Shown: positions 7,261 through 62,273 of the stretch, one piece after another | How the letters are laid out: the number at the start of each line of letters is the position of its first letter | How positions within the stretch are numbered: the first letter of the stretch is position 1 | DNA from: Vigna angularis | Taxonomy: Eukaryota > Streptophyta > Magnoliopsida > Fabales > Fabaceae | Assembly: GCF_016808095.1 (NCBI RefSeq) | Contig: NC_068979.1 | Coordinates: forward strand, 20,047,444-20,111,443 | DNA length: 64,000 bases | Reading direction: 5' to 3' | Program-made: the position numbers and the translations under genes | The notes under the pieces: model-generated | The model's input: the letters and a program-made list of their open reading frames with translations, nothing else | What the model was told of the DNA's origin: nothing | Databases searched by the model: none

Positions 7261-8268
7261 TCATTCTAGAGTACTCATCAGCACAACAAGATCGGACTCC
7301 GAATCACATGCCTCCTGAGCAAGATTTGTCGCCTCGTCATTCTTGGTCTTCTTCGCGACTTCATTGTGCCAGTGCTTTGGAGAGTAGTGCTCGTATTTGT
7401 TATAGGTGTAGCATTGAACGTTTCTTTTGTCATGCCCTCTTCTTCCTCTGCCTCTAAATTGTCTTCCTCCTCTATTGTTTCCCTCACTTTGCTCACTGCC
7501 ATTAACTTCCATGTGCTGATCAGAGGAGTTTATGCTTCTACCACCCGTTCGGCCACCGTGTATCCGTCCTTTGCCTCTTCCAGCTCCTCGACTCTTGAAG
7601 CTTTGATTATTTCTGGCTTGCAAGGCTTTATTTGTGCCTTGAACCAACACCTTTTCTACATTCCTCCTTTCAATTAATCTTTGTTCATGCGCCTTTAGAG
7701 AATTATGCAGTTCTTCCACTTTCATTGTTTCAAGATCCTTGCTTTCCTCTATGGCAACCACGATGTGATCGTACTGTGGTGTTAAGGTCCGAAGTATCTT
7801 CTCGACAATCTTTTTGTCCTTCAAAACCTTATCGCATGCTCTCATAGCATTCACCACGATCTAAATTTTGCCGATGTACTCCACCACCGTTTCCTGCTCC
7901 CCCATGCATAGGAGCTCATATTGCCTCTATAGGAACTGCAAACGGACCTTCTTCACCTTGCCGAAATTACCATAACCATCCTGCAAAATGTCCCAGACCT
8001 CTTTGGCCGTGGCAGCTTTCGAGACTTTCTGGAAGATAGTAGCCAACACACACTGATGCAACAACATTCGAGCCTTGCAGTCCAACCTTTTATTCTCCTT
8101 GTGTTGTCTCTTTGCTTCTTCTGAATCTCCCTTCAAAGATTCTTTAAAGCCTTTCTTAACTATCTCGTCCACTTCTTGGAAGCCAAGCATCGCGTCCATC
8201 TTTACACACTAATCATCAAACCCCTTGCCGTCAAACACAAGTAGATTGCTATGAATAACACCAGCCAT
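7261..8268 (-). pseudogene. Copia gag (UBN2/Retrotran_gag type), disrupted
   Basis: The frame opens at ATG 8268 (MAGVIHSNLLVFDGKGFDD) and is broken by in-frame TAGs at 8209-8211, 7927-7929 and 7861-7863. Typical Copia gag segments are clear: AKEVWDILQDGYGN, KVKKVRLQFL, RQYELLCMGEQETVVEYIGKI, and ILRTLTPQYDHIVVAIEESKDL. A zinc-knuckle position is present (CYTYNKYEHYSPKHW), but its second and last Cys are replaced, so nucleic-acid binding is probably lost. The product would be the nucleocapsid polyprotein of the surrounding element. Confidence 0.8.
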
Positions 8269-13570: not shown

Positions 13571-16251
13571 ATGAAGCACCGAACATGGCCTCGCGTTTCT
13601 TCTTCGCCTTTTTCCTCCCTTAATTTCTCCAACGCAACCGCTCCCCGATTCTCCGCCGCGCATTCGGCCCGCTCCACTCGCCTCTGCGCGCGCCCTCCGC
13701 CGTCCCCTCCCGGCGCCGATTTCACGGCACTACCCTACGATGTCATGGTGAGGATCGCCGCCTCCTTCGACCACCCCAACCTCCGCGCGGCGTCTCTCGT
13801 GTGCCGCGCGTGGTGTGAAGCGCTGCGGCCGCTGCGGGAGGCCATGGTGCTGCTACGCTCGGGGAAGCGCTTCAAGCATGGTCGCCGCGGTGTCCGCCCC
13901 AACGCCGACAAGGCGCTCGATTCGTTCATGAAAGCTGCCGCGCGCGGTTCCGCCCTCGCCATGGTTGACGCCGGCCTCATTTACTGGGAGAGAGGGGAGA
14001 AGCCCAAGGCCATGGAATTGTATCTCAGGGCCGCGGAACTTGGAAACCCTTCTGCGCAGTGCAATTTGGGAATTTCCTATCTCCAAGGTTTTCATTTTAA
14101 TTTCATCATTACCCTAATTTTTGACTGTTAGTTTTGGAAACTCCATGTTTAATGACTGTATGACCAAAATAATTAATAGTCACCTTACGAGCTGTGCTGA
14201 GTTAGAAACTTGTGTTTTATCTTTCATTCTCTTCTTTTAGGAGAGAATGCCAGGGAATCTTCCTCATCACATGCACCTTTTGGATTTGGTGTGTGTTTAT
14301 TGGTATTTTAGGTTGTGTCCAATATCCTTGTTATTCTGTCTCCGTGTTCTTAGGATAAATACTACTTTTATTCTTTGGTCTGCGAGATCTGTGGCAAGAA
14401 ATGATTTTTAATATTAATTTGAAAAAGATAATGTAAAAGGTCTATATTTGCATATGTGTAGGTATTTCTTTGTGAAATTTTAATGAATATAATATATACA
14501 TTATGCTGATGATTCGTGTTCTGAAAAGGTTTATCTATGCTGTGCAGCTGAACCTCCGAACACTGAACAAGCTGTCAAATGGTTATATAAAGCTTCTGTG
14601 TGTGGGAATGTTCGTGCTCAGTACCAGCTTGCGCTTTGGCTGCACAGAGGTGGTGGAAGGGTCTGTAGCAACATGAAAGAAGCTGTTGGTGCTCTCTTCT
14701 TATTCTTCCCTCTTACTTTTAATTATGATTCATGAATGGACATGTTCTTTCTGGGAGGGGTTCTGGGAAATCTGTTTGGGAATTGACTTGTAATGTTGGG
14801 TGTTTCTGGTTCTTTGTTATCGTGATGTGACGTATTAGGATCTTTGCTTTTACAGGCTAAATGGTATATGAAAGCTGCTGAGGGTGGGTATGTCCGTGCT
14901 ATGTACAATATCTCCTTGTGCTTGTCCATTGGGGAAGGACTGTCACGTAATCATCAACTAGCTAGAAAATGGATGAAGCGGGCTGCAGATCGTGGTCACA
15001 GTAAAGCTCAGTTTGAGCACGGACTTGCTCTCTTTTCTGTGAGTTTTTATCCCTTTACCTTACTCTTTTGTGCTTTAAACATTTGAGAGGGTAAATGAAA
15101 CACTCATTCATGCTTTATCCCAAAGAAGATTAATTCAAGTTTTTTAAATTTCAATTTCTTAGAATTGATAGGATAATTTAATTTATATACAAGGAAATTA
15201 AAATTAAAATTTTAATACTGAACTTTATGAAAATGGCTATTATTAAATATTTAATATTTTAAAATTACATAATATCTAATAATTCTAAAATAAAAGAATA
15301 GTCGCATTTTGCGTCATTATTGATAAAAATACGACAAATACAGCTGAAAGTGGGGGCAAAAGAGAGAAGAGAGCAGAGGGAGAGAACAAAGAGATAGATG
15401 GAAGAGAAGAGAGTGAAGAGAGGGAGAGAAAAGAGACAAAAAAGGATATAGAAGAGAAAGAGGACAGTAGCAAACACAGAAAGAGCAGAGAAAAGAGAAC
15501 ATTGGAAATTTCAAAATTCTTACTATTTTGGTAGAATTTGAAATTAATTTTTAGTAATCAAAATACTTCTATAAATTTTTAGAATTTCAATTTCTTTGTG
15601 AATTCTCTGTTCAGACCATGTCACTGCAAAACATTTTAAATTCTCCAAAAATAGAATTATTCTCTTTAATAACATCAATTTCTTCTAAATTTTCCTAGTT
15701 TAACAACAGCAGGAGATCATGGCTGAAACCATTTGCTAGATGTTTTATCTATAACTTTGGTTATCGTCATCGCATGGTTAATTTCTCTATAGTTATTTAG
15801 TTCATGACAATAGATATAGACATACACATACTAATGAAAAATGTGATTTTTTACGTGCATAGTGATTATTATTTGTTAGAGGTTTTGTTTCTATCCGGCA
15901 TTCTGACATTTGCTATTTCTGTCGGGGTTCCAAATGTTCTACCAATTGCTTCATTATTTATATTTTTGGTTTCATTCTGATGTTCTTGTCTGGAATGTTT
16001 CTACTATTCGAATAGCAGTGAACTATGACTAGAAATATTAGTAGGATTATTCACAACTAAGCGGTTGGTGGACAATATTTATTCAGGAGGGAGACATGAT
16101 GAAGGCTGTGGTATACTTAGAACTTGCTACTCGAGCTGGTGAAAAAGGTGCAGCTCATGTCAAGAATGCAGTTCTTCATCGGCTTTCATCGGCTTCACGT
16201 GATCATGCAATGCATCTAGCTGACAGTTGGCGTGCCTTGCCATCAGTTTGA
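13571..16251 (+). CDS. F-box protein with Sel1-like repeats (At1g70590-like)
   Basis: Four exons: 13571-14087, 14548-14684, 14856-15038 and 16087-16251. They join in phase to 333 codons plus TGA. Residues 51-90 form an F-box (FTALPYDVMVRIAASF, then CRAWCEALRP) that would bind SKP1. From about residue 105 to 290 there are Sel1-like TPR repeats (ALDSFMKAAARGSALAM, AMELYLRAAELGNPSAQ, AKWYMKAAEGGYVRAMY, ARKWMKRAADRGHSKAQ). The Arabidopsis homologue At1g70590 is of similar length. The expected role is substrate selection in an SCF ubiquitin ligase; no substrate is known from sequence. The N-terminal 50 residues are Ser/Arg/Pro-rich and variable in the family. Exon 1 is GC-rich compared with its surroundings. 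The donor of intron 2 (GTTGGT at 14685) is set by phase, because the next GT would create a stop. Confidence 0.9.
15358..15470. repeat. Purine (GA/AGAG) tract in intron 3 of the F-box gene
   Basis: An almost pure purine strand with GAGA/AGAG words lies inside the 1,048-bp intron 15039-16086. It is flanked by AT-rich DNA. Such tracts can bind GAGA-type (BBR/BPC) factors or form triplex structure. No function is shown here. Confidence 0.6.
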
Positions 16252-18540: not shown

Positions 18541-20373
18541 TCAAGGCAAATATGACATCCTTTGAGAATTCATTCCTGCATGATACAAATTGAGGTGGAT
18601 TATTGCCCTGGAGACCAATTCCTTTAGATGCTGAGGAAGAACTGTTCTGTCTGCACCTTCAAGCACTGTCAACACCCTTGCTTGCTCCAAGGACTCACTG
18701 TTGCCAGCATGAAGTGCAAGGTAGCAAAGAAGAGTTAGCCCATCGTGCATCTGGGTAACTTCATTACTCCTGAGCAGTCTCATCAGTGCCGGGATGCCAT
18801 TGAATTCAATTATCGTCTTAGAATGCTCAACGTGTAGGAAATTATCCGGAGAAGCAAATTTGGTAAGAGCAAGTGCTGCCTCATCTGCTACTTTTGCATT
18901 TCTATGACTCATCTGTGCAACTAGAGGTTCAATTACCCGAGTCTCTCTAGCGGGAAACGTCCTAGCCAACGCACCAACGGACTTCATAGCTGGAATTTGC
19001 AATGCAGGGTTATCCACCTCTTTAATTATCCTCAGCAGCTGTTCCACAACAGTCTTAGCAGCAGGAGAATTGGTTTTAAACGCTGCTCGACGAAGGTCAG
19101 CATTGGATTCAGCAGCTACAGTTACCTCCATTATCGTCATCAAGCAATTAAACTGAAGCTCTCCTTGCTCATTCTGAACAATCTTAGCCAAACAAAGCAT
19201 CCCTTTGGTCTCAGTTATCTTCCTACTGTTGGTCACACTCCCTCGCGCAAGCATCCACAACGCCTCAGCGCAACTAACCTTTAGCTGAAGCTTCACCTCA
19301 GGATCCTCATTCTCCCTCTCCTTCTTATGATTCCCTCCCCGGCTACTTCCCTCCGCAAAAAAATACGAATTCGAGTAGGAATTCGCAAAATGGCGACCTC
19401 CTCGGCTACCCTTTCCCAACTCCTTATTAATCTGAACAATGGAGTGAATACTTTGCTTCCCCAAATGATCCCATTGATCATCCACAAAGGTGTCAAACGA
19501 CAAGAGTGTCACAAGCGGTCTAATCACGTTCTCGCGGGCGAAATCCTCCTGAGCCACAGGGTCATGCTTGGCCATCCTGGCAACCAAATTGGCAGCCAGG
19601 GTCTGAACCCTCATGGGGGAGTCACTGAGAACCTGCACAACAGCAGGCACACCATGCTCACCCACAATCACTCTAACCCTATCCAAATCATTAGCCAAAT
19701 GACACAAAGCACCGGCAGCAGCAATTTGAGCAAGAGGGGAAGTGCCTTCCTTGAAAAGCTTCAACAAAGGAGGCACCCCACATTCCTCAACTATGATCTT
19801 CTTATTCCTATCGTTATCTTGAGCTAAAGAAGTAAGTTGATTAGCAGCCTCAATTCTATCATTTAATTGACCCATTTGAAGGGAAGCGATGAAAGACCAT
19901 ACCCAAGATAAAATGGGGTCGTTGCTGGCTATCGGAGGGAGCGAGAGGACAATGCCGCCGTCGGCATCGAAGATGCTCAGGAGCCACTTCATATCACCCA
20001 CGGACGCGTCCAGGTGGGCCAGGACTTTGCGGAAATCGGCGGCGCCAACGATGGAGACAACACGGTGGAGGATGCTCCGGCGCTTGCACTTGCGCACGAG
20101 GGCCAGAGCGCGGTCGAGATTCTTCGCCGTCTCGGCAGCGACGCGGCGGATAGGACGCTCGTAGAGCGGCGGCGACGCGGCGGAGGTGTTGGTGGCCGTG
20201 GCAAAGCGGACGAGGGTTCGGAGCATTTGGAGGAGGCGATCGACCTGCTTCCACACCTCCGAGCACTCAGCTTTGAATGAGTCGGCCTCGTCCACCGCCG
20301 AGCGAACTCGCTCCGCCAACATAATCGGGTACGATAACTCTTCCTCCACTCGCTTCTCCTCCAACAACGCCAT
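18541..20373 (-). CDS. ARMADILLO REPEAT ONLY (ARO) family protein
   Basis: A single open frame of 610 codons plus stop, with no intron, as is usual in the ARO family. Residues 10-140 form the family's helical N-terminal domain (YPIMLAERVRSAVDEADSFK, LYERPIRRVAAET, LDRALALVRKCKRRSILHRV, GDMKWLLSIFD). From about residue 170 to 600 there are armadillo repeats (NDRIEAANQLTSLAQ, GVPPLLKLFKEGTSPLAQIAAAGAL, GVPAVVQVLSDSPMRVQTLAA, AEALWMLARGS, VADEAALALTKFA, GIPALMRLLRS). A Gly/Ser/Asn-rich loop lies at about 320-350. Arabidopsis ARO proteins confine Rho-of-plants (ROP) GTPase signalling at sites of polar growth in pollen tubes and trichomes, so a peripheral membrane scaffold role is inferred. Which ARO member this is cannot be told without a tree. 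Confidence 0.92.
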   Translation of the reverse strand: MALLEEKRVEEELSYPIMLAERVRSAVDEADSFKAECSEVWKQVDRLLQMLRTLVRFATATNTSAASPPLYERPIRRVAAETAKNLDRALALVRKCKRRSILHRVVSIVGAADFRKVLAHLDASVGDMKWLLSIFDADGGIVLSLPPIASNDPILSWVWSFIASLQMGQLNDRIEAANQLTSLAQDNDRNKKIIVEECGVPPLLKLFKEGTSPLAQIAAAGALCHLANDLDRVRVIVGEHGVPAVVQVLSDSPMRVQTLAANLVARMAKHDPVAQEDFARENVIRPLVTLLSFDTFVDDQWDHLGKQSIHSIVQINKELGKGSRGGRHFANSYSNSYFFAEGSSRGGNHKKERENEDPEVKLQLKVSCAEALWMLARGSVTNSRKITETKGMLCLAKIVQNEQGELQFNCLMTIMEVTVAAESNADLRRAAFKTNSPAAKTVVEQLLRIIKEVDNPALQIPAMKSVGALARTFPARETRVIEPLVAQMSHRNAKVADEAALALTKFASPDNFLHVEHSKTIIEFNGIPALMRLLRSNEVTQMHDGLTLLCYLALHAGNSESLEQARVLTVLEGADRTVLPQHLKELVSRAIIHLNLYHAGMNSQRMSYLP

Positions 20374-25552: not shown

Positions 25553-27147
25553 TGGAACGAGAACAGAGGAAGAAAGAATATATGTTTGAAGTGAATAAAC
25601 TGTATCTGTGTATATTTACAATAGCAGCACAGGTGTTTTATATACAAAGTAAAATGAGAGATGTTGGACAGTTAGCAATACAGCTGTCTTGGCTTAACGC
25701 ACTAACATTCCCCCCTAAGCCAAACATTTAAGTGACACACTCTCAATTTTCTTCTTCAATGTACTATCATCAGCAAACTTCACCTTGCTTTTCTTCGTTG
25801 TTTCAAAATTAATCAGTCATTCTCTGTGGCATGTCATATGGTTTGAACAACCAGAATCTAGGTACCACAAGTCAGATTGAGAGGAAGAGTTTTCTGCAGA
25901 AGTGGTTACCATCAAAGTCAACGATTCTGAATCTAAATCTTGTGCAATGTAAGCCTCTTTTCCTTGATATTTCTTCTGCCTACTCTTATCAGCATAGCAT
26001 TCATAAGCATAATGTCCATGCTTGTGACAATTGAAGCATTCCACACTTCTTTTATCCTTCTTTTGGTAACCTCTATCCGATCCGCCACTCTTCTCCACTG
26101 ATACAGGTTTGTCTTCTTGATCATCTTTACCCTTATCAGTCTTCCAATTCCCTTTTGCGTGTTTACCTTTCCACTTCTTGAACTTCTTTTTATCATTATT
26201 CTTAGAATGGTGTACCTTCAGGGCTTGTTCACTGTTCTTGATGGGATTTCTATCCAATAACCTCATCTCATGTGCCTCCAGCGAGCTTTGAAGTTCCTCA
26301 ATTTTCATTTTTGAAAGATCTCTCGACTCTTCAATTGCAACTACTATGTAGTCAAACTTCTGTGGTAAGGATCTCATAATCTTCTCAATAATCATCAGAT
26401 CATTGATTGACTTTCCACATCCTTTCATCTGATTCGTGATGGTCAGAACCTTGTTGAAGTATTCACCAACTTTATCACAATCTTCCATCTGCAATAACTG
26501 TACTGTCTCCTCAAGGTCTGGAGCTTTACCTTCTTAATGTTTTCTCCTCCCGCATGGCATCGCACCAAAATACTCCAAGCTTCTCTGGCAGTAATCGCAT
26601 TCTGGATCTTTTCAAAGTGAGTATCATCAACACATTGATGAATGAGAAACAACGCCTTGTTGTCTTTCCTCCTGACTGCAGCTTTCTGATCTTCTGAAGC
26701 ACCAAGATCAAGCTCTAGCCCATTGCCCTCAACGACATCACTCACATCTTGAAATCTGAACAACACTCTCATTTGCGTGTTCCATCTGTTCCAATTCTTC
26801 TCTGTGAGTATTGGAAGGTTTGCTGCTGGAACATCTATTCCTGTCATGCTTCAAACACTCTTCTTTGATCAAGAAACAGAATCTTGACACCCTTCTTCCT
26901 CCTTTGCCTTAATCACTCTGGCCAGCCACACTGTACCGTGAACACTACGCTCCTCAGGTCCTCACTCGACCTGGCTCTGGATACCAATTTAATGGAACGA
27001 GAACAGAGGAAGAAAGAATATATGTTTGAAGCGAATAAACTGTATCTGTGTATATTTACAATAACAGCACAGGTGTTTTATATACAAAGTAAAATGACAG
27101 ATGTTGGACAGTTAGAAATACAGCTGTCTTGGCTTAACGCACTAACA
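25553..27147 (-). mobile_element. Young gag-only Copia-type retrotransposon
   Basis: Two 155-bp LTRs (25553-25707 and 26993-27147) run TG to CA and differ at only 4 positions (about 97% identity). On the minus strand the primer-binding region TTGGTATCCAGAGCC follows the 5' LTR. A G-rich purine tract (TTAGGGGGGAA) precedes the 3' LTR. No flush target-site duplication is seen (AGTAA against ATGAG), although ATAAGTA and ATGAGTA occur next to the ends. The interior is only 1,285 bp: gag, zinc knuckle and the first residues of protease. Integrase, RT and RNase H are absent, so mobility would need another element's enzymes. It lies inside the duplicated amine oxidase copy. Confidence 0.88.
25817..26847 (-). 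pseudogene. Copia gag with zinc knuckle and protease start, frameshifted
   Basis: The frame opens at 26847 (MTGIDVPAANLPILTEKNW) and reads LFRFQDVSDVVEG, AREAWSILVRCHAG and KVKLQTLRRQY. It then shifts near 26490 into the frame beginning MEDCDKVGEYFNKVLTITNQ. The second part has IMRSLPQKFDYIVVAIEESR, a complete CX2CX4HX4C knuckle (CFNCHKHGHYAYEC) and ends with WYLDSGCSNHMT, the protease active-site motif. A stop replaces the Trp expected after CHRE. With the single frameshift corrected by nature or by slippage it would be a normal nucleocapsid. As written it is broken once in gag. Confidence 0.85.
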
Positions 27148-41840: not shown

Positions 41841-43232
41841 ATAGTCAATATTTTTATATTTCTATATGATAGGATTGTTATTTTATCATTTTTTACATAT
41901 TTTCATATGAAAAATAAAAAAATAGTTATGATTAAGTTTTAAAATCTTTTGTAACTTTGAATATTTTTAATTAAATTATTATTATAAATTTTCATTTTAA
42001 GTATCCAAGCTTTTATACTTTTCAATTAATTTCTTAATATTTAATTTTGTTGTGAATTTAGGTGATCTAACCGTTTAATTTCTAAATGTCAAGCATAACA
42101 CCTCAAACTTAAACAAGAATAAAAACAAAAATGTTAATAACTCAACGTACTTGGTTTGATTTTAATCTTTAATTTAAAAAATGAAACATTATCGTTTTTA
42201 AAAGACAATTAGGATTTTAAATTTTTTATTATCATCTAAGTTTGTAAAATAAAGTGTCTCATTATTCAATTGAAGATAATTATAGAGTCAATTAAAAAAC
42301 ATAAATATTTTGGACACAAATTTTAGGAGAGGTTGAATTGAAAATATCTAAATTTATTAGAAGTTTAAAAATTAATGAATTTTTTTTAAGTAGAAACACG
42401 ATTGATATTATTCTTTTTATTATGCCTTCAAAATAGAGTTGTTTTGATATATTCAAAATAGACATAATTAATGTTTTCTATACTTAGGTTCTTGATTCGT
42501 TTTGTTTTTTATATTTATTTTTATTTTAATTGAGTTTTAATATTTGTTAAATATAAGTGAATATGTCACTTCCGTTAAATTGAAATTAACACCATTTGAA
42601 AAGTGATCACATAGCAATGTGATAAAAAGATCAATTAATAATTTGTACTATATTAAAACATATGCTTTGTTTTTGTTTTTATATTTTTTTCACAATCAAT
42701 TGAATTATTTAAATAGAGACAATGTAGTCTATTCCATAAAATAGAGACAATTGATTATGTCACCATTTTTCTTCCTCCACACCATCATCACCACCCATAC
42801 CTCCATCCTTATCTTCTTTCATTTTTCTGCACTCTACAAACATTGCACATCTTCATCTCTATTCCACCATTCTCCAACCAACACCCAAAACAAAACTCAA
42901 CCCCCATTTCTTCCATCTTTCTTCTTCATTCGGCCAACAACAGATTCTTCCTCGCCTCCATTTGCACCCCTAAATACCAGTTCCCATTTAGTTTGCCCTT
43001 TCCTCACACTTCGAACACAGTAGGAAACCTTAGAACCCTTCACCATAAAATGTCACCCCAACACGGACCAATCATCTTCTCACACAATCACCAACTAACA
43101 CCCATTTTTCCAAAGAAACCCTCGCGTAGGGAGGAAAAAGAGTGGCACTAGCAGCACCGGCGGTGATCCCGTTCGTGTGTTGCAACAACGTCTGGCGAGA
43201 TCAGTCACGGGGGCGGGGGTTGTGACAGTGTC
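41841..43232. other. Intergenic DNA left of the large MULE
   Basis: 41841-42740 is AT-rich. 42750-43230 is C-rich and then GC-rich and gives overlapping open frames with no recognised domain. Sequence of the same style continues on the far side of the MULE (51450-51650), so the MULE probably sits inside an older repeat. Confidence 0.45.
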
Positions 43233-43241
43233 AAATATGGG
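43233..43241. repeat. Left target-site duplication of the large MULE
   Basis: AAATATGGG here is repeated exactly at 51441-51449, flush with the right end of the element. Confidence 0.8.
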
Positions 43242-43710
43242 GCTTTTGCACCAAACTAGGCATATTTGCCTAGAATATTACCAAAATGGGTAAATTTTGA
43301 CCGAATCTGAAGTCGTGGGGGCCAAAACGACTTCAAATGAAGAAGTCGTGCCCCTCCTGCACGATTTCACACTGTTCATTTGACCAGTGGTGAAGTCGTG
43401 CCCCCCCAAAACGACTTCTAGGTGTTGTAATCGATTACAATATACTGGTAATCGATTACAAAGTGATGAAAACGTGACCCTGCATGATTTCTTTTCAGTA
43501 GGCAAAAAAGCTACTGGTAATCGATTACGACACTTCTGTAATCAATTACCAGTGTTTTTATTGTGCAAAAAGCACTCTGGTAAGCGATTACTAAACTTCT
43601 GTAATCGATTACCAGTGTTTTTATTGTGCAAGAACCACTCTGGTAAGCGATTACAAGCTTGTTGTAATCGATTACCAGTGTGTTTTTGGTTGGTTTTTGA
43701 AAATGATTTT
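43242..43710 (+). repeat. Left terminal inverted repeat of the large MULE
   Basis: It pairs with 51020-51440 along its whole length. From the end inward it has an AT-rich tip (accaaactaggcatatttgcc), a GAAGTCGTG/CACGACTTC-rich block (about 43310-43425) and a GTAATCGATTAC-rich block (about 43428-43680). It extends to within about 180 bp of the transposase stop codon. Confidence 0.9.
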
Positions 43711-43890
43711 GTAGTTTACATATTTTATGTATTGGTTGTGTTATACGAAAAAAGAAGTTGTGGTTATTATGTAATGAATGGATGAATGGAGACAAATTTG
43801 AAGAAAAGAGAAAAAAAATATGAATAAGAAATATTAATATTAATATAATAATAATGGATTTGATTACAATTGGGTAAGATTAACAAATAA

Positions 43891-45934
43891 CTAATGACGA
43901 AATGGACAATTTCCCCTATGATGACCTTCGTTGCGGCAGTAAGAGCATTTTTTTGGCTTATCTGGATTGGATTGATCCATTTCATTATGAATCCTATTTG
44001 TAGATGGTCTTCCGGATGCCTTGAGTCGCATTTTAGGATCTGGTATGAAGTTTGGACCTGTATACGTAGGCCAATAATCTTGATTTTGGATCGGGTGAAA
44101 TTGTACTTCATATGCCTTGAAGATGTTGTTAAGACTGTACACTGGATCAATTACTTGTGTTAGTGGGATATGCGAAAATGCACAAACAGCAATGACATGA
44201 TGACATGGGAGACGAGTAGCCTGGAAGTGACCACAATCACACCACCATTCATTTAGGCTGACCTTATAGGAAAGTGGAACATGGCGGTAGTGGTGAGGTG
44301 TTGAAATTTCACGAATATCAAATTCAGAATTCTCACGGTTGTAGCGATGAACATGACAAAATGCGGATTGTTGTTGACTTTTCCTAATGATGTCGGCGAT
44401 TTGTTCAGGAAATTGGTGGCCTGCTTGTAGCATATAGTTCGCCTTTAATCCTCGTTCAACAAACCATGATTGTGTCCTCTCAAATGTTGTTCTGATGAGA
44501 GCACATATTGGTAATGAACGTGCTCCCTTTAAAATGGAGTTGATGCACTCAGCAAGATTAGTGGTTATATGTCCATATCTTCTCCCTCCATCAAAAGCCT
44601 GAGACCATTTTTGTAATGGGATTTTATCTATCCAATCAACTTGTTGTGGGTATTGGGCTCTTAGTGCAGTAAGTTTTGCCGTCACAGTTGGTTGCTTGAC
44701 CTCGTAAGCTGTAATGACGTAATGAATAAATAAATTTTAGAATAATGTTACAAGATTATAAATGTAAAAGGGTATAAAAAATGTTTGTAGTAGTACCTAA
44801 ATTGATGAATTGTTTTTTGAGGTCATGATTTTTGAATTTGTTGTTGAAGTTTGATGCTAGATGACGTATGCAATAAACAGAGTTCAAACCATCTTGTTCC
44901 CCACTAACTTCTTCCGATCTTAAGGCCGATAGGATACCCTTTCCTCTGTCAGTGATGATGCAAATATTTTGTTGACGGCAAACATGTTCTCGAAGTAGTT
45001 GAAAGAACCATATCAAGGCCTCCTTTGTCTCACCTTCTACAATGGCAAAGGCCAAGGGAAAAAGATTTCTATTGCCACCTTGAGCTATGGCGGTGAGCAA
45101 AGTTCCATGATACTTACCCGTTAGAAATGTACCATCAACTTGGAGAATGGGTTTACAGTATTTGAATCCTTGTATGCAGGGACCGAAAGACCAGAAAACT
45201 CTTTCCATAATATAGCAATTATTGTCAGTTTGTCCATTAATCTGCACTGGAGAACCAGTGCATTGTAAAATTGTACCTGGGTTTGCCTCCTTCACGGCAT
45301 GCAACCATCTCGGCATGTGGTTATAAGAGTCCTCCCAATCTCCAAACTCCATAGCAAGAGCCTTTTGTTTAGCGATCCAAGCTTTTTTGTATGACACACA
45401 ATATCTAAATCGAGCTTTAATATCGGCAATCAAACTCTTGATTGGAATGGATGGGTTTGTGCGGACTGAATTTGATATGATCGCGGCAATGTGAGAACTA
45501 TCAAGATTTGTATGATCTTGAGATAGTATGGTTGAGAAACACGAATGTTGGCCGTCGATATTCTTGATTTCCCAATACTTACGGACTTTGCTATAAGCTG
45601 CCCTCAAACGCCATTGACAACCGTTGTGATATTCCACACAACGAATGACATAAATGTTGGGCTTCGATTCAACGACGGTGTATTTGTAACCGTTGGTTAT
45701 GTGATAATGTTTGATTGCAGCAATAGTTCCGTCCTTTGACTGGAACTGCATACGTTCATTCAACTCTGGAATGACATGTGTAGATGATTGTGTGATTTGT
45801 TCGTCGTTGTTGTCATCTTCAAGTACGTTGTCTAATTCATCATCGGTGCTGAACTCATCAACATTATCTAATATCAAAGGTTGTTCGTCGATGATTTGCG
45901 ATGATGAAGATGGTGGAAAGTTCCCCGATTCCAT
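43891..45934 (-). CDS. Mutator-like transposase (MURA type)
   Basis: Two exons, 45934-44797 and 44708-43891, join in phase to 651 codons plus stop. The intron is GTACTA to TTACAG. Residues 60-150 are the MuDR-type N-terminal DNA-binding region (FQSKDGTIAAIKHYHI, C-X5-C-X-WRLRA). The DDE core follows, with Asp267 (LQVDGTFLTGKYHGTLL), Asp329 (IITDRGKGI) and probable Glu433 (TNLAECINS). A SWIM zinc finger is at 536-550 (WWCDCGHFQATRLPCHH) and a CCHC knuckle at 634-647 (CSYCRNEGHHRGNC). All expected parts are present without a stop. An upstream ATG at 46027 would add 31 residues; MESGNF is preferred because the added segment is unlike the family. The product should bind the TIRs and excise and insert the element. 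Confidence 0.92.
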
Positions 45935-46038
45935 AACGTTATAGATGTGCGAGAGAAAACAAAAGATTGGAGTATAATGAGAGTTGGTGGCAGTGGAGTG
46001 AAGATGAGAAGATGGATAAAGACTCATACAATATACGT

Positions 46039-46046
46039 ATATATAG
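46039..46046 (-). promoter_or_regulatory. TATA box of the transposase gene
   Basis: CTATATATA on the minus strand lies about 105 bp upstream of the chosen ATG (45934), a normal distance for a plant core promoter and short leader. It supports transcription starting between the palindrome and the gene. Confidence 0.5.
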
Positions 46047-46290
46047 AAGTTTCAAGTGTGAAAGATAACTTTCTGATAAGTGAGTGTTACGGTCAAAAAT
46101 AGGGGGTCTGTCATGTAGATTTATTGGATTGCATATTTACACGCAATTGTAAGGTATCTATAGTATTACATTGATTTCTTTCCGTATAAAGGAATTTCCA
46201 CTGTGCTCTGATATATCATAAGCTTTTGTTGTTAACAAAAAAAATAATATAGTATTTAGATGTATTACAAATGTTTTATAACTAAAAGTG

Positions 46291-46509
46291 CAAAACTAAT
46301 TCAAAATATGATTTAAAAAAAAATTGGGAAAAGGGAAGTTGTGGGGAGGGGGCACGACTTCAATAGGTGAAGTCGTGTACCCCCTACACGACTTCAATAA
46401 TTAAAGTCGTGTAGGGGGTACACGACTTCACCTATTGAAGTCGTGCCCCCTCCCCACAACTTCCCTTTTCCCAATTTTTTTTTTTAAATCATATTTTGAA
46501 TTAGTTTTG
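46291..46509. repeat. 219-bp near-perfect palindrome between the divergent MULE genes
   Basis: The arms, of about 107 bp each, start CAAAACTAATTCAAAATATG and end with the complement. They differ only in the length of a T run and at the centre. Each arm contains the words GGGGGCACGACTTCA and TGAAGTCGTGTACCCCC, which also form a small inner hairpin. The same GAAGTCGTG/CACGACTTC words occur several times in both terminal inverted repeats. It lies between the transposase promoter and the PMD gene. Confidence 0.95.
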
Positions 46510-46899
46510 AAGTGTAAAAATTAGTTTTGGACTGTAATAAAATGTTTAAAAAATTAAATATGTTTGTAAAAACTTAATTACATTTTGTTTTAAAGAAAAA
46601 TAAAATATATTACTATTCATTACCACTATGTGTGATGATTTATAATTGACCTTGTACACATGCACTGAAGCTACGGCTCTGACCATCAAGATTAGGTGTG
46701 CTATTCTCACTTCCTATTCATTTGCATGGGTGTCCCTTTGCAGATTTGAGCCTGAAGATTCCTCCTATTCATATGCATGCCTATGTACCCTTTACAGTAT
46801 TTCGAGATTCGTTCCAAGACCACATAATTGAATTTGGAATTGTGCATCCCATTTGACAGAAGCACGTGAAGTTGTGATTGTTTGTCCATCAATGTTTGT

Positions 46900-46909
46900 C
46901 CATAAATAG
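46900..46909 (+). promoter_or_regulatory. Possible TATA box of the PMD gene
   Basis: CCATAAATAGG lies about 115 bp upstream of the ATG at 47024. Spacing and orientation fit a core promoter. The match is partial. Confidence 0.35.
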
Positions 46910-47023
46910 GTGCAGGGTCATTTCATTTCAACCATTGCATAGCCTTTCCAATTGTTTGTTCCAATAGCCAAACCACATAATTTCTGATCACCGCTTTTCA
47001 TTCCTCTGCCCAAAAAATTCTAA

Positions 47024-48996
47024 ATGGCTTATGCCCGTCAACTTCCCGTTGATATGTCCCTTCTACGTCTACAAGATAAACACATTGTCAAGGCAATATG
47101 GGAAGGAAATGAACGAGTTATTTGCCCGCGGAGACATGCAATCTGGATAGCAAAACATGTTAACGAACTTGATGAAAGAATCATGAATATTCTACAGGCA
47201 GCGGGGTTTATCCATATTTTGAAAGTGTCAAATATGGAAATAAATCACCAGTTAGTTACTGCTTTGGTTGAGAGGTGGAGAGTTGAGACTCATACTTTCC
47301 GCTTGCCTCTTGGTGAAAGTACTATAACATTGGAAGACGTTGCACTACAACTAGGGCTTCCCATCGAAGGTCATGTTGTCACTGGCATCAGTAGTGGTCC
47401 TCTAACATGTTTTGGTCAACAACTACTAGGAGATGTTCCTTCTGAGAACAGTGTAAGGGGCAACAGAATTAAGTTGTCTTGGCTTAATAACACTTTTTGC
47501 CATTTGCCTCATGATGCCACAGATGAGGTTATTCAACAATACGCTAGAGCGTATATGTTGATGATAATTGGCAGCATCATGATGCCAGATACATCTGCAA
47601 GCATGGTGCATCTGATGTATCTACCACTTTTGGCGGATGTGCAGACCGTTTCACAGTATAGCTGGGCATCCGCAGTGCTTTCCTGCTTGTATCGTGCCCT
47701 TGATCATGGGACTAAGGCTGACCAAGAAAATATCGGAGGGTGCATGATCTTGTTACAATGCTAGGCATGGGAAAGAATAACATGTATTTCCCCACAACTA
47801 CTCGATGTCATAGAAGAAGACATTACTTCTGGTGCACTGTTTCCCCTTGCAAAAAGATGGTGTCGAACAACACAGTCAATATTCTGTGACACGACAATTG
47901 TTGAACAATTTCGTTAGAAGTTAGACGACCTATCACCACGACAGGTAATTTTGAACTGTCCTATCAATATTGCTGTATATATTTTGTTATAATTGGCTTA
48001 ATTTGCTTAATTTGTTTTTAACCAAAAACTTCAATGCTTCAGTTTATATGGACCCCGTACAGAGTTCATGACATTGCTCAAATCATTCCAGTCGAAGTGC
48101 CTCCTACTTGTCGAGCAGTTGTGCCTCTCATATGTTTCTCTGTTGTAGAATACCAGCAAGCAGACCGTGTGATGCGTCAATTTGGATTTCGGCAAAATCT
48201 ACCCCATCCACCAATGAATCTAGATGACGAACATAAACAGGATATGAGAGGACGCGCAGATTGGAACTGGCAAGAACACCATCAACAATGGATTGCATTA
48301 TGGAATGACCGGCATAATCGTGTATTCAACGGTATTCCATTCCAAAAAAATGGTCACTTGCGAGATGAATCGGAGTACATGCAATGCTATATAACCCATA
48401 CAATCTGCTATATTGCTGTCATACAAGATTCAACGGACGAAAAGGTACCACAATATCCCCACATTTTAAATTATGAAAGTCTTATTATCTTGCGTTCTTC
48501 AATCAAACATTGTCTTTACCAGTATGACATGGAGCACGAACAACAGTTCCAACCGTCATTTGCATACTGTGCATCACCACCGTTTCATGATCCACAAAGG
48601 TCTGCCTCTGACCATGTCAACTATCAACATCCATCTCTGAATTCAAGGTTCGAAGCACACATGCCACCGACATCAACATATCCCCAGGTTGAGACCTCTT
48701 ATTTCGTCTTTCCACCATTAACACCGTTCAGTGGAGGTCCATCATCTTTTATCGGAGGTCCTTCCAATTATTTTGGAACCTCGACAATGACTCCACCATC
48801 TTCATACCAACACGCCTCATCCTCACAAAATGTGTATCGACTGACCCTTCATTTCCAAGACCTAGAACAGTCTAATGAAAATCATGCCACTAATGAAGAC
48901 CAACACACGCAAAGTCCCACACTACAACAACAACAACAAAGGCGAGGCCAACGACAACGACGAAGACCAACGTGTGGGACTGGAGGACATAGATAG
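47024..48996 (+). pseudogene. PMD (plant mobile domain) gene carried by the MULE
   Basis: Exon 1 is 47024-47944 and exon 2 is 48043-48996 (donor CAG/GTAATT, acceptor TTCAG), in phase for 625 codons. PMD features are AGFIHILKVSNMEINHQLV, ALVERWRVETHTFRLPLGES, TITLEDVALQLGLPIEG, LSWLNNTF, YARAYMLMIIGSIMMPD and WASAVLSCLYRAL. In exon 2 they are FIWTPY and VVPLICFSVVEYQQADRVMRQFG. The C-terminal quarter is Pro/Ser/Gln-rich and ends in an Arg-rich tail. Two in-frame TAGs (47762-47764, before AWERI where Trp is usual, and 47915-47917) would stop translation after residue 246. In transposons PMD proteins may aid transposition or interfere with silencing; that role is inferred from the domesticated MAIN proteins. 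Confidence 0.8.
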
Positions 48997-49204
48997 ATTG
49001 ACTCATCAACAAAATTATAATTATGTAATTTGTCTTTAATTTCTTAATGAATTAGAAAAAAAATGTTCATTACAAACCTTTATCCTTTTCAGTTATTATT
49101 TCACATCATGTCAAAACAAATATAGCCTCCATCAATTTTAATATATGATGCCTTCAATCAATACTAAAGCATGGTTCAGAAATCAAATTTGGTCCCTCCA
49201 CACA

Positions 49205-49379
49205 CTGGTAATCGATTACAGTTTGTACTGTAATCGATTACCAGATTGACCCTGTAAGGGATTATAGTCTTTGCTGTAATCCATTACCAGAGACCCTGGT
49301 AATCGATTACAGGGTTTCTGTAATCGATTACCAGAGGACTCTGGTAATCGATTACAGAAACCCTGTAATCGATTACCAG
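49205..49379. repeat. Array of TGGTAATCGATTACAG words upstream of the third MULE gene
   Basis: About eight full or near-full copies of the palindromic 12-mer GTAATCGATTAC alternate in both orientations, some paired tip to tip (ctctggtaatcgattaca / tgtaatcgattaccagag). The array ends about 12 bp before a TATA-like box. The same word is repeated in both terminal inverted repeats. Confidence 0.9.
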
Positions 49380-49390
49380 CCGAACCCTAG

Positions 49391-49399
49391 TCTATAAAT
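49391..49399 (+). promoter_or_regulatory. TATA box of the third MULE gene
   Basis: TCTATAAAT lies directly after the GTAATCGATTAC array and about 185 bp before the ATG at 49580. A pyrimidine-rich leader (ctttttctctctcc) follows, as at many plant start sites. Confidence 0.5.
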
Positions 49400-49579
49400 T
49401 CAACTTTTTCTCTCTCCTCACGAACACTCATCATTCCCACTCTAGTGCCAGCGCCTCCCCACGGTTTTCCTTCGTCCCCAACCTCCAAAATCAAGTTTTA
49501 TTCCTCCATTTTCACATCTAAACACCAATTATCACATCTCCTTTCCATTCTCTTCAATTTGCACCGATTGGAATTTCAA

Positions 49580-50786
49580 ATGGCGGAATCTAGCAAAGAG
49601 TTAGGCGCTCATCTTCTACAGCTGGGGGACGTCGTCGCCGTCAACCTTCACCCCCAGAAAGCTCACCCACACCCTCACCACCACCGTCACCGACTGCTCA
49701 ACAACAAAATCTACAATTTTCCACTCCTGCACTAGCTGAAAGGTATTTCTCGCTATATAAAGACCGTCAAATCATTGAGCCAAAATACCTAGATGACGAA
49801 TATTTCGAAAGTCACGGTTTTGAATTTTATGGCATGGTCAAAAATATGGGATTGGATGATTTTCTCTGCGATTATGCAAGTTATTCTCCTGATTTGGTAC
49901 GTGTGTTTTATAGTAACCTCAAATTTTCTCATAATGGAACAATGAAAACTGAGGTGAACAATGTGAAAATGATTATCAAACCCAGCATTTTTGCTTCCAT
50001 CGCCAACCTTCCCTCTGTTGGGTTGAACTTTGAGGGTAAATTATTTGAGGATTGGGCCGATGAATACAATATACGCGTAGCCAGACAATTAGTTTGTTTG
50101 CCACACAATCCTCCTGTGAGTAGAATCCTAGCCGGCAATATGATAGTTGAGGCTAGAGTATAACATATGTTATATGTCGTGTTTTGTTTCCACGTGTTTC
50201 TAACTTTGCACAGGCAACCGAGGAAGATCTTCTGATAATGTGGATAATAATGACGGCAAAGCAGATTAACTGGACCCATCTCATCCGACATAGGATGAAG
50301 AAGGCTTTGAGGCCAGGTGCTCCTTTACCATATCCAACTTTGGTCACCCGGATCCTAGAACATTTTCAAGTTCCATTGGACGATGAAATTTGTGTCCCAC
50401 TTAGTCGGCATTGGACAATATCAGGAGGAGTGATACAGTCATTTGGATTGACCAGAAATGCTGACAACAGATGGGTTCACAAAAATTCTCCTCCTCCTCC
50501 ACCTCAACATCAAAATCAACCACCTCCTCAGCTACAACCACCACCACCACTTCTTCAACAACAAAGTAGTTCATTTGATGACGTTATGAGGGGGATAAAC
50601 GATCTTCGAACATTTTTTGGGGACAGGTTCAATACACTCAATGAAAGCATGAATGCAAGATTTGAACAATTGGAGCTAAACATGGGTGACCGCTTTGATA
50701 CTATTGATGCTCGAGTTGAGCATGTCGAGCACGACATTGACTATCTGCGTCGTCATTTTGGTCCACATGCTGGATCATCTTCCTAG
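49580..50786 (+). pseudogene. Third MULE gene: plant transposon protein with coiled-coil tail, frameshifted
   Basis: It starts MAESSKE at 49580. A frame change near 49600-49612 is then needed to continue as RRSSSTAGGRRRR, LAERYFSLYKDRQIIEPKYL, MVKNMGLDDFLCDYASYSPDLVRVFYSNL and IIKPSIFASIANLPSVGL. An intron at 50158-50213 (AGA/GTATAA...CACAG) joins in phase to ATEEDLLIMWIIMTAKQINW and HLIRHRMKKALRPGAPLPYPTLVTRIL. A Pro-rich linker and a coiled coil of about 60 residues (LRTFFGDRFNTLNESMNARFEQLEL) close the protein at 50786. The middle part matches the 'putative plant transposon protein' family common in legumes (PF20167-like, by memory). Its biochemical function is unknown. Without the frameshift it would be about 395 residues. 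Confidence 0.7.
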
Positions 50787-51019
50787 ATGCCTTTCAATTT
50801 GTAGTGTCCTTTTATTTTAATTTAAGCTTCTTCCTTTTGTAATGCATTTTTTATTGAATAAAATACTACAAATTCCATTTATGATTTTGTCTTATGATTT
50901 ACATGAAATCAATTACTCTTCCTATACATAACAATACATCACAATGTAATCAACAACAACGTCTGCTTACACAAATTCATATCAGTACACATAATTAACT
51001 TCAACATATGGGATTCAAC

Positions 51020-51440
51020 ACAATACAATTTTCCAAAAACCAACAAAAACACACTGGTAATTGATTACAACAAGCTTGTAATCGCTTACCAGAGTGGTTA
51101 TTGCATAGTAAAAACACTGGTAATCGATTACTAAAGTGTCGTAATCAATTACCAGTAGGTTTTTTGCCTGCAGAAAAGAAGACCTGCAGGGTCACGTTTT
51201 CAACACTCTGTAATCGATTACCAGTATATTGTAATCGATTACAGCTCCCAGAAGTCGTTTTTGGGGTGCACAACTTCACCACTGGTCAAATGAACAGTGT
51301 GAAGTCGTGTAGGGGGGGCACGACTTCTTCATTTGAAGTCGTTTTGGCCCCCCACGACTTCCTCATTTTTGTAATTTGATTTGAATTTGCCTATTATGGT
51401 AATATATGATGTATATTTGCCTACTTTGGTAACAAAGCCC
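51020..51440 (-). repeat. Right terminal inverted repeat of the large MULE
   Basis: Complementary to 43242-43710, with the same three-part layout. It lacks one of the two aagcgattac blocks of the left copy and has scattered substitutions. Confidence 0.9.
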
Positions 51441-51449
51441 AAATATGGG
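51441..51449. repeat. Right target-site duplication of the large MULE
   Basis: AAATATGGG, identical to 43233-43241. Confidence 0.8.
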
Positions 51450-60186: not shown

Positions 60187-62273
60187 GCTTTCTAAGTTTT
60201 TAATGATAACTAATATTTTAATTAAATAAACTAAAATAATTTTTTTGATTACATGTTAAACTATTATATTATCATTTATAATTGAAATTTATGTATTAAA
60301 TAATAATAACTTTTCATTTACAATGCTACTATATATTTATATCCTTAAATATATATACTATAAGAAATTTAAAATTATTTTTTATTTTTATTTTTTAAAA
60401 AAAGGGCCAATACTATTTCATCCTGCTGTTGTTATCAATTTCACAGATTGGGGGCACTAAACTAAAACGAACTAATGAATTGAAATATTCTAAAAAGACT
60501 GGTCAAAATTTAAGTGTACCAACACTCTTAAAAAAATTATATATATTAAATTTTAATAAATTATTAAAAAAAGTATGAATAGAAAATGATTAAATAAAGT
60601 GGAAAGCATATAATAATAATAAAATAAAAGTAAGACAAAAAAAAGAAGGTTTGCATGCATGCACAACTTCCATTAAAAGCGAAAAATAATAAAAAGAGAG
60701 GTACCTGAGTCACAGAGCAACTTTTGCTTTTGCTTTACTGGGTGGTGGATGATTAAGGAAGGAGGTAGATCAGTCACTTGTATATACTCTTCTGTATAAA
60801 AAATGATGAGTGAAAAAGTAAGTGTTTTTGTTTGTAATATTTTGTGTTGTTTAGGTAATATAACGTGTTTGAAAAAAAGAGTAGAATGTAACATGATAAC
60901 GCTTTGTTTGGAGCAGCTAGGGATGGGAAGCGCGTTGGAAACGCTGTGTGGACAAGCAGTGGGCGCAGGGAAGCTTAACATGTTAGGCGTTTACATGCAA
61001 AGATCGTGGGTGCTACTCTCGATCACGGCTTGTGTTCTATGTTTTCTCTACGTCTTCGCAGGACCTTTTCTCACTCTAATAGGCCAAGACCCAGAGATAT
61101 CTCGAGCGGCAGGAAAATTCGCCATATGGATGATTCCGCAGCTGTTTGCGTACGCGTTCAATTTTCCGGTGGCCAAGTTCCTGCAGACGCAGAGCAAGGT
61201 CATCGTGATCGCTGCAATATCAGGGGTGGCCATGGCGCTGCACCCGCTCTTGAGCTGGTTACTCATCATGAAGGTGGAGTGGGGTCTGGTGGGTGCGGCG
61301 GTGGTGCTAAATGCGTCGTGGTGGTTCATAGTGGTGGCTCAGTTGGCGTATGTGCTCAGTGGTAGGTGTGGGGCAGCCTGGAAGGGGTTTTCATGGGAGG
61401 CTTTTGGCAATCTTTGGAGTTTCTTTCGCCTATCTCTTGCCTCTGCCGTCATGCTTTGGTCAGTCTCACCTGAACCTTTCGTTTCTTTCTTTTGTCTCTT
61501 TCACTTTTTCTTTTTTTATCTTTATTTATTTATTCATAAATAATAAAAATACCAAAATTTTAAAAAAAATTAAATTAAAATTTTTAATTCTAATAGCGTT
61601 AAAGTCTTTGATTATACAATTTTAATTGTATTATAAAAATATTATTTCTCATAATTATTATTATAATAAAAATAAATATTAATAATAATATATTTGTTAT
61701 TATAAATATATAGATATTTTGTTTTTCTTTAAATCAAATGAAGCCATATTAAAGAAACACGATTAAAACGAAGTTTCTTTTATACCCAATACATAATAAT
61801 TATATTACAACTCTTTTGCAACAAGAAATACTCGTAAATTTTTTTTTATAAAAAAAATCAAGTCATTAATTATTATATTGTTTTTTTTTGCGATTTTAAC
61901 TGCATCGTCATAATAATGATAATTATAATATTTTTTATTACAGTATTATTTATAGTAAATAAAATTAATATTAAAAAATTATTGTAAGAATAATAAAAAT
62001 ATTATCATTATTATTAATTATAACTACTATTATCTATTGAAATTGAAATAATATAAAAATAAAAACTTAATAATATTACAGTTAGTTTTTCATTTATTTG
62101 TAAAGTTTTGATATGTTGATTTTTTCTTTAACCTAAATTAATAAATAAATGAAAAAGAAAAAAAGAAAAACCCGACAAAACAGAGAAAGAGATGATATAA
62201 CTTTCCATTACCAGTCCCTAATTATAATAATATACAACATCGTACAAGTATAAAGTATATACTTTAGAGAGTG

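What the first reader, a model, noticed from the sequence alone, without database searches (positions are those of the whole stretch)
43242..51440. Complete three-gene MULE with long TIRs and a 9-bp target-site duplication
Seen directly: inverted ends of 420-470 bp, flush AAATATGGG repeats, and an intact 651-residue DDE transposase with SWIM and CCHC fingers. Two further genes (a PMD protein and a coiled-coil transposon protein) are transcribed the other way. MULEs carrying PMD genes are known; this layout, with three genes around a central palindrome, may be a separate family. Recent movement is likely because the transposase is open across its intron.
Basis: partly seen in the sequence, partly recalled or inferred. 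Interest (0 to 1): 0.8.

Follow-up and report, generated by a model that had tools for sequence, protein, structure and literature searches.

The report
Three-gene MULE with VANC-like PMD protein
This is one decayed copy of a many-copy plant DNA transposon whose second gene makes a protein predicted to fold like VANC21, a protein that lets an Arabidopsis transposon escape silencing, and whose non-coding DNA carries repeated short words that look like protein-binding sites.

Summary
The element is real. The 651-aa MULE transposase is open across its intron. A PMD gene and a Transposase_32 (PF20167) gene run the other way; both are broken here. At least 39 other TIR-length ends lie in the same genome (probably Vigna angularis). 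Nine of 15 copies with both ends (window included) have flanking 9-mers matching at 8 or 9 positions, against 0 of 210 mismatched pairs. The copies form an old burst (window tip 2.5-3.5%), so recent movement is not supported. A MULE with an antisense PMD gene is a known kind.

I propose a VANDAL/VANC-like, sequence-specific anti-silencing system using a PMD protein. Binding and demethylation are inferred.

The parts
43241..51439 (.). whole element (PMD-MULE copy), terminus GGCTTT.../...AAAGCC
43232..43240 (.). target-site duplication CAAATATGG, left
51440..51448 (.). target-site duplication CAAATATGG, right
43241..43700 (+). left terminal inverted repeat with 3 B pairs (GAAGTCGTG/CACGACTTC) and 4 A pairs (GTAATCGATTAC)
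51020..51439 (-). right terminal inverted repeat with 3 A pairs and 3 B pairs
43891..45934 (-). transposase gene, 651 aa, exons 45934-44797 and 44708-43891, intron 44709-44796; MULE, DBD_Tnp_Mut and SWIM domains; open
46315..46483 (.). palindrome = internal array of motif B (8 half-sites 46335-46463) between the divergent transposase and PMD genes
47024..48996 (+). PMD (PF10536) gene, introns 47945-48042 and 48445-48522 (by splice signals and relative P0147); broken by two in-frame TAG
49208..49376 (.). internal array of motif A (7 words) directly upstream of gene 3
49580..50786 (+). gene 3, Transposase_32 (PF20167) protein; two frame breaks here

Best explanation
A cut-and-paste MULE family (transposase acting on TIRs, 9-bp TSD) that carries its own sequence-specific anti-silencing system, working like Arabidopsis VANDAL/VANC. 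SHOWN: TIRs, TSDs, three genes kept in order in the full-length copies, many copies, two families of short words confined to the non-coding parts (both ends, the divergent promoter region, the region before gene 3), their conservation above spacers, array size varying between copies, and the predicted VANC21 fold of the PMD protein. INFERRED: the PMD protein binds the reiterated words, probably as a dimer on sites two helical turns (21 bp) apart; it opens or demethylates the element's own promoters and ends; and the transposase can then be expressed and act. Which word it binds, and what gene 3 does (perhaps a partner or a binder of the second word), is open.
Against: Shared fold is not shared function, and the query is a predicted model of a relative. 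By sequence the PMD profile does not find VANC21 in the PDB set; the DUF1985 matches are far below Pfam's cut-off (13.7-16.8 bits against 35.1), and the window's own two PMD pieces give none up to E 0.1. The words do not resemble the published VANC21 or VANC6 motifs beyond chance. The Arabidopsis PMD proteins MAIL1/MAIN act in silencing, with DNA methylation mostly unchanged in mail1 (PMC5418596, passages). There is no binding, methylation or expression evidence. Conservation of words would also follow from binding by the transposase or a host factor. Word conservation is not uniform: position 5 of A is 0.83 and position 4 of B 0.73 over all sites.
Confidence: 0.48

Rival explanations
1. The reiterated words are binding sites of the element's own transposase (or a TnpA-like assembly), serving synapsis and excision; the internal arrays arose as copies of the ends and mainly regulate or are passive.
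For: Words of both classes are listed in each of the 35 ends and stand in the consensus of the ends; small derivatives keep them (L046, L052, L055, L056). Subterminal repeat binding by TnpA in En/Spm and TIR binding by MURA are recalled, not looked up with success (one search found no paper).
Against: Internal arrays of one class each sit between the divergent genes and before gene 3, and are present with different sizes in the full-length copies. The outermost 25 bp, expected to matter for cutting, are less conserved (0.869) than the words.
Confidence: 0.27
2. Gene 3 (Transposase_32) is the word-binding protein for motif A, and PMD does something else.
For: Array A sits directly upstream of gene 3; deletion derivatives L044, L045 and L054 lost transposase and most or all of PMD but keep gene 3, though L044 and L054 keep little or none of the internal A array. 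Gene 3 was the least constrained of the three (shared variants 35/33/47), as expected of a fast-evolving specificity factor.
Against: No fold or domain evidence for DNA binding: model pLDDT 37, no PDB sequence match better than E 0.11.
Confidence: 0.13
3. The words are sites for host transcription factors that drive expression of the element (homeodomain-type palindromes are recalled as similar), with no anti-silencing role.
For: Palindromic word with a preferred 21-bp spacing upstream of a gene.
Against: Only 1 exact word in 119,204 bp outside elements; the words also fill the ends. Genome-wide counts could not be obtained.
Confidence: 0.08
4. The arrays are only by-products: tandem and inverted duplication of end sequence by replication slippage, with no binding protein.
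For: Tandem arrays of related units; array size varies among copies.
Against: Linkers differ while words and 21-bp spacing stay; words exceed spacers in conservation, 0 of 306 rolled labels reaching it.
Confidence: 0.04

Closest known systems
VANDAL21 / Hiun of Arabidopsis with the anti-silencing protein VANC21 (PMC5735166, parts 1-3 of 6 read; PMC10398659, outline and introduction)
   Same: three-gene MULE; transposase plus accessory genes; short words at high density in non-coding regions, often in arrays of changing size; accessory protein with the VANC21 fold
   Different: long TIRs here, VANDALs lack them or have short degenerate ones, with some clade members having TIRs (PMC6446971, passages); accessory gene is PMD, not DUF1985 by Pfam cut-off; words are different and palindromic; no activity data here
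plant MULE clades with antisense PMD gene (MUDR, MUDRAVI2, MDR, MULE-Solanaceae_1; Dupeyron 2019, PMC6446971, passages)
   Same: 9-bp TSD, SWIM and/or CCHC transposase, PMD gene often in antisense; most of these clades with TIRs; one clade also with an unknown ORF
   Different: the Transposase_32 gene and the two word families are not mentioned in the passages seen; clade placement not tested
PMD genes in TEs and host MAIL1/MAIN (Ikeda 2017, PMC5418596, passages)
   Same: PMD; the authors speculate that MULE-captured PMD serves anti-silencing
   Different: their MULE PMDs are fused to transposases in grasses and Amborella; no fold or DNA-target link in the passages seen

Membership tests
MULE superfamily | MULE transposase domain | tested here: met
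   PF10551 E 1.3e-16, above cut-off; 237 relatives with E<=0.001, best 120 listed
MULE superfamily | 9-bp target-site duplication | tested here: met
   exact in the window; 9 of 15 copies (window included) at 8-9 of 9 matches, 0 of 210 mismatched pairs; 2 further copies (L039, L056) exact over 10 bp when shifted by one; 4 of 15 (L042, L045, L047, L054) without a clear TSD
MULE superfamily | terminal inverted repeats shared by dispersed copies | tested here: met
PMD-bearing plant MULEs | PMD gene in antisense to the transposase, kept across copies | tested here: met
   same order in full-length L039-L042; several shorter copies lost PMD
PMD-bearing plant MULEs | transposase falls in a named PMD-bearing clade | not tested
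   no reference transposases of the named clades were at hand
VANDAL | VANC gene with DUF1985 by sequence | tested here: not met
   DUF1985 13.7 bits on P0147 against cut-off 35.1; none up to E 0.1 on the window's pieces; PMD profile does not find VANC21 in PDB
VANDAL | TIRs absent or short (46-174 bp in the table) | tested here: not met
   ~420-bp TIRs; range from PMC6446971
VANC-like protein fold | fold of the DNA-bound VANC21 crystal structure | tested here: met
VANC-like anti-silencing system | dense short words in non-coding parts, rare elsewhere | tested here: met
   148 against 1 exact words inside/outside in the DNA held; genome-wide count not obtained
VANC-like anti-silencing system | protein binds the words and removes methylation | not testable with these tools
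   needs EMSA/ChIP and bisulfite sequencing

The most novel reading that the evidence does not exclude
The plant mobile domain as a whole is a VANC-type, sequence-specific DNA-binding fold. Many PMD-bearing MULEs then carry a private anti-silencing system aimed at their own reiterated words (here GTAATCGATTAC pairs and/or GAAGTCGTG/CACGACTTC units), and host MAIL1/MAIN may be domesticated members that use the same fold for silencing.
Probability: 0.35. Interest if true: 0.85.

Novelty: new variant of a known kind. Interest (0 to 1): 0.62.

Why it matters
A 2021 review calls PMD a domain of unknown function and the mode of action of MAIN and MAIL1 largely unknown (PMC8616336, passages). If PMD has the VANC fold, its function becomes directly testable, and this family supplies candidate target words. 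It would extend sequence-specific anti-silencing from VANDALs of Arabidopsis to PMD-bearing MULEs. My library search for papers holding both 'VANC' and 'plant mobile domain' gave 2, neither linking the two structurally in the passages seen; the paper of the VANC21 structure 9lnj was not among the results of my one search for it (2 hold the terms, 1 listed, a 2022 meeting report), so the link may already be in print.

Tried and rejected
Recent activity: rejected as unsupported. Gene-3 'intron': rejected, intact relatives code through it. PMD and gene 3 as relatives of each other: profile comparison gave no support (probability 0.3 of 100). Gene-3 structure: model too poor to search. Likeness of the words to VANC21/VANC6 motifs: shuffled queries do as well in 96% (A, VANC21), 42% (B, VANC21), 76% (A, VANC6) and 8.6% (B, VANC6) of cases. 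Papers with GTAATCGATTAC: 3, all on bacteria by title. Papers with 'putative plant transposon protein': 2, association studies. Papers on TnpA subterminal binding: none with all five terms.

Not obtained: genome-wide count of word pairs, the PMD search of the whole genome (to see whether other PMD-MULE families have other words), empty sites, and further full copies. Of my genome-search runs only 4 and 74 were answered; the others were 'busy'.
Full report
WHERE. The window is contig C10:20047444-20111443 of a 448-Mb genome in 33 contigs. Two of its contig lengths, 65,407,200 and 32,215,300, equal the longest contigs listed for Vigna angularis proteins P0028 and P0030, so I take it to be V. angularis (inference).

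ANATOMY. Aligning the two ends gives 377 of 423 identical columns. The ends shown (15 copies with both ends, window included, and 5 with one) start GGCTTT or GGTTTT in most cases, which moves the element to 43241-51439 and the TSD to CAAATATGG. Spliced, the transposase has 651 codons without a stop, is collinear with a 652-aa V. umbellata protein at 86% and 91%, and has MULE, SWIM and (0.1 bit under cut-off) DBD_Tnp_Mut domains. The PMD gene has two in-frame TAG where its relative P0147 has W and Q. Gene 3 has two frame breaks against relatives P0002-P0004 of 400-406 aa.

FAMILY. A search with the left end gave 335 candidates, of which 40 were scored, and 81 matches; 41 of them are TIR-length ends, 39 besides the window's own two. 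Four are full length with the same gene order (L039-L042; L041 with an insert, L042 without a clear TSD); others lack parts; L046, L052, L055 and L056 are small; L044, L045 and L054 keep gene 3 but lost the transposase and most or all of PMD. TSDs: of 15 copies with both ends, 5 match at 9 of 9 and 4 at 8 of 9; six do not (7, 6, 5, 4, 3, 2), two of which (L039, L056) match over 10 bp when shifted by one. Of 210 mismatched left-right pairs none reaches 8. Of 14 loci with transposase matches, window included, the window is the only one that covers both exons in full without a stop; stops counted in PMD pieces that span introns may lie in the introns.

AGE AND SELECTION. In trees of 9 transposase and 12 gene-3 sequences the window's tips are 0.025 and 0.035 substitutions per site, and internal branches are mostly shorter. 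Variants shared by two or more copies favour codon position 3 (transposase 21/8/36; PMD exon 1 8/7/15; PMD exon 2 6/5/10; gene 3 35/33/47). Private ones do not for transposase (75/65/76) and gene 3 (68/68/70) but do for PMD exon 1 (39/21/65; 5 copies) and less for exon 2 (22/14/27; 7 copies). I read this as genes kept by selection while the family was active, weakest for gene 3, and copies decaying since.

THE WORDS. Class A is GTAATCGATTAC, a 12-bp palindrome with a central CG. The window has 21 within one mismatch, all in the element, against a shuffled mean of 0.17. They stand in pairs 21-23 bp apart in the left end, at 49208-49376 before gene 3, and in the right end. Over 14 bounded elements there are 148 exact A words in 65,281 bp against 1 in 119,204 bp of flanks, the rest of the window and 8 arbitrary loci. 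In 35 aligned ends of 20 elements, A columns are 0.982, B columns 0.973, other columns 0.858 and the outer 25 bp 0.869 conserved; within the block that holds the words, spacers are 0.913, and none of 306 rolled labellings reaches the difference. The CG columns of the words are 0.941 conserved although CG should decay fast. Copies were found by likeness to the window's left end, which favours conserved stretches in general. Internal A arrays have 7, 3, 8, 4, 6, 6 and 7 words in the window, L039, L040, L041, L042, L051 and L057; the derivatives L044 and L045 have 1 and 3, and the rearranged L047 has two sets of 9. Internal B arrays have 8, 6, 6, 4, 2, 2 and 6 half-sites in the window, L039-L043 and L058; L051 has none there.

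HOW IT LIKELY WORKS. VANC21 binds a 9-bp word at high density in non-coding parts of VANDAL21 and causes loss of methylation there; the arrays change quickly (PMC5735166, parts 1-3 of 6). RdDM targets the same regions (PMC10398659, outline and introduction). The element here has the same logic: dense words in ends and promoter regions, arrays of changing size, and an accessory protein with the predicted VANC21 fold. I propose that the PMD protein binds class A or B words and lifts silencing. Ikeda et al. (PMC5418596, passages) speculated that MULE-captured PMD serves anti-silencing; the fold and the words give that idea a mechanism. PMD and MULE transposase domains also occur in one gene model in Lupinus albus (P0085, P0131).

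VERDICT. An ordinary superfamily, a known gene pair, an old copy; but the arrays and the fold link make it a good test bed for what PMD does.

Noticed in passing
L047:382-5870: A copy rearranged as an inverted duplication: two gene-3 pieces facing each other, five sets of class A words (35 words within one mismatch), one gene-3 frame without stops over its whole length.
   Followed up: partly
L044, L045, L054: Internal deletions join the left end region to sequence near or within the gene-3 array region; recombination between word arrays is a possible cause.
   Followed up: no
window 47762-47764 and 47915-47917: Both PMD stops stand where the relative has W and Q, as C-to-T or G-to-A changes would give, typical of methylated DNA (inference).
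   Followed up: no
window 18541-20373 (-): 610-aa ORF with DUF7792 and armadillo repeats, a probable host gene.
   Followed up: no
window 60803-61543 (+): ORF with MatE transporter domain, probably one exon or part of a host gene.
   Followed up: no
window 13571-14131 (+): ORF with F-box-like domain, probably a host gene or part of one.
   Followed up: no
window 7261-7857 (-) and 25817-26494 (-): copia-type gag remnants.
   Followed up: no
one search hits: A Transposase_32 relative P0021 at 36% identity stands for 53 member sequences from JGI data, source organism not named.
   Followed up: no
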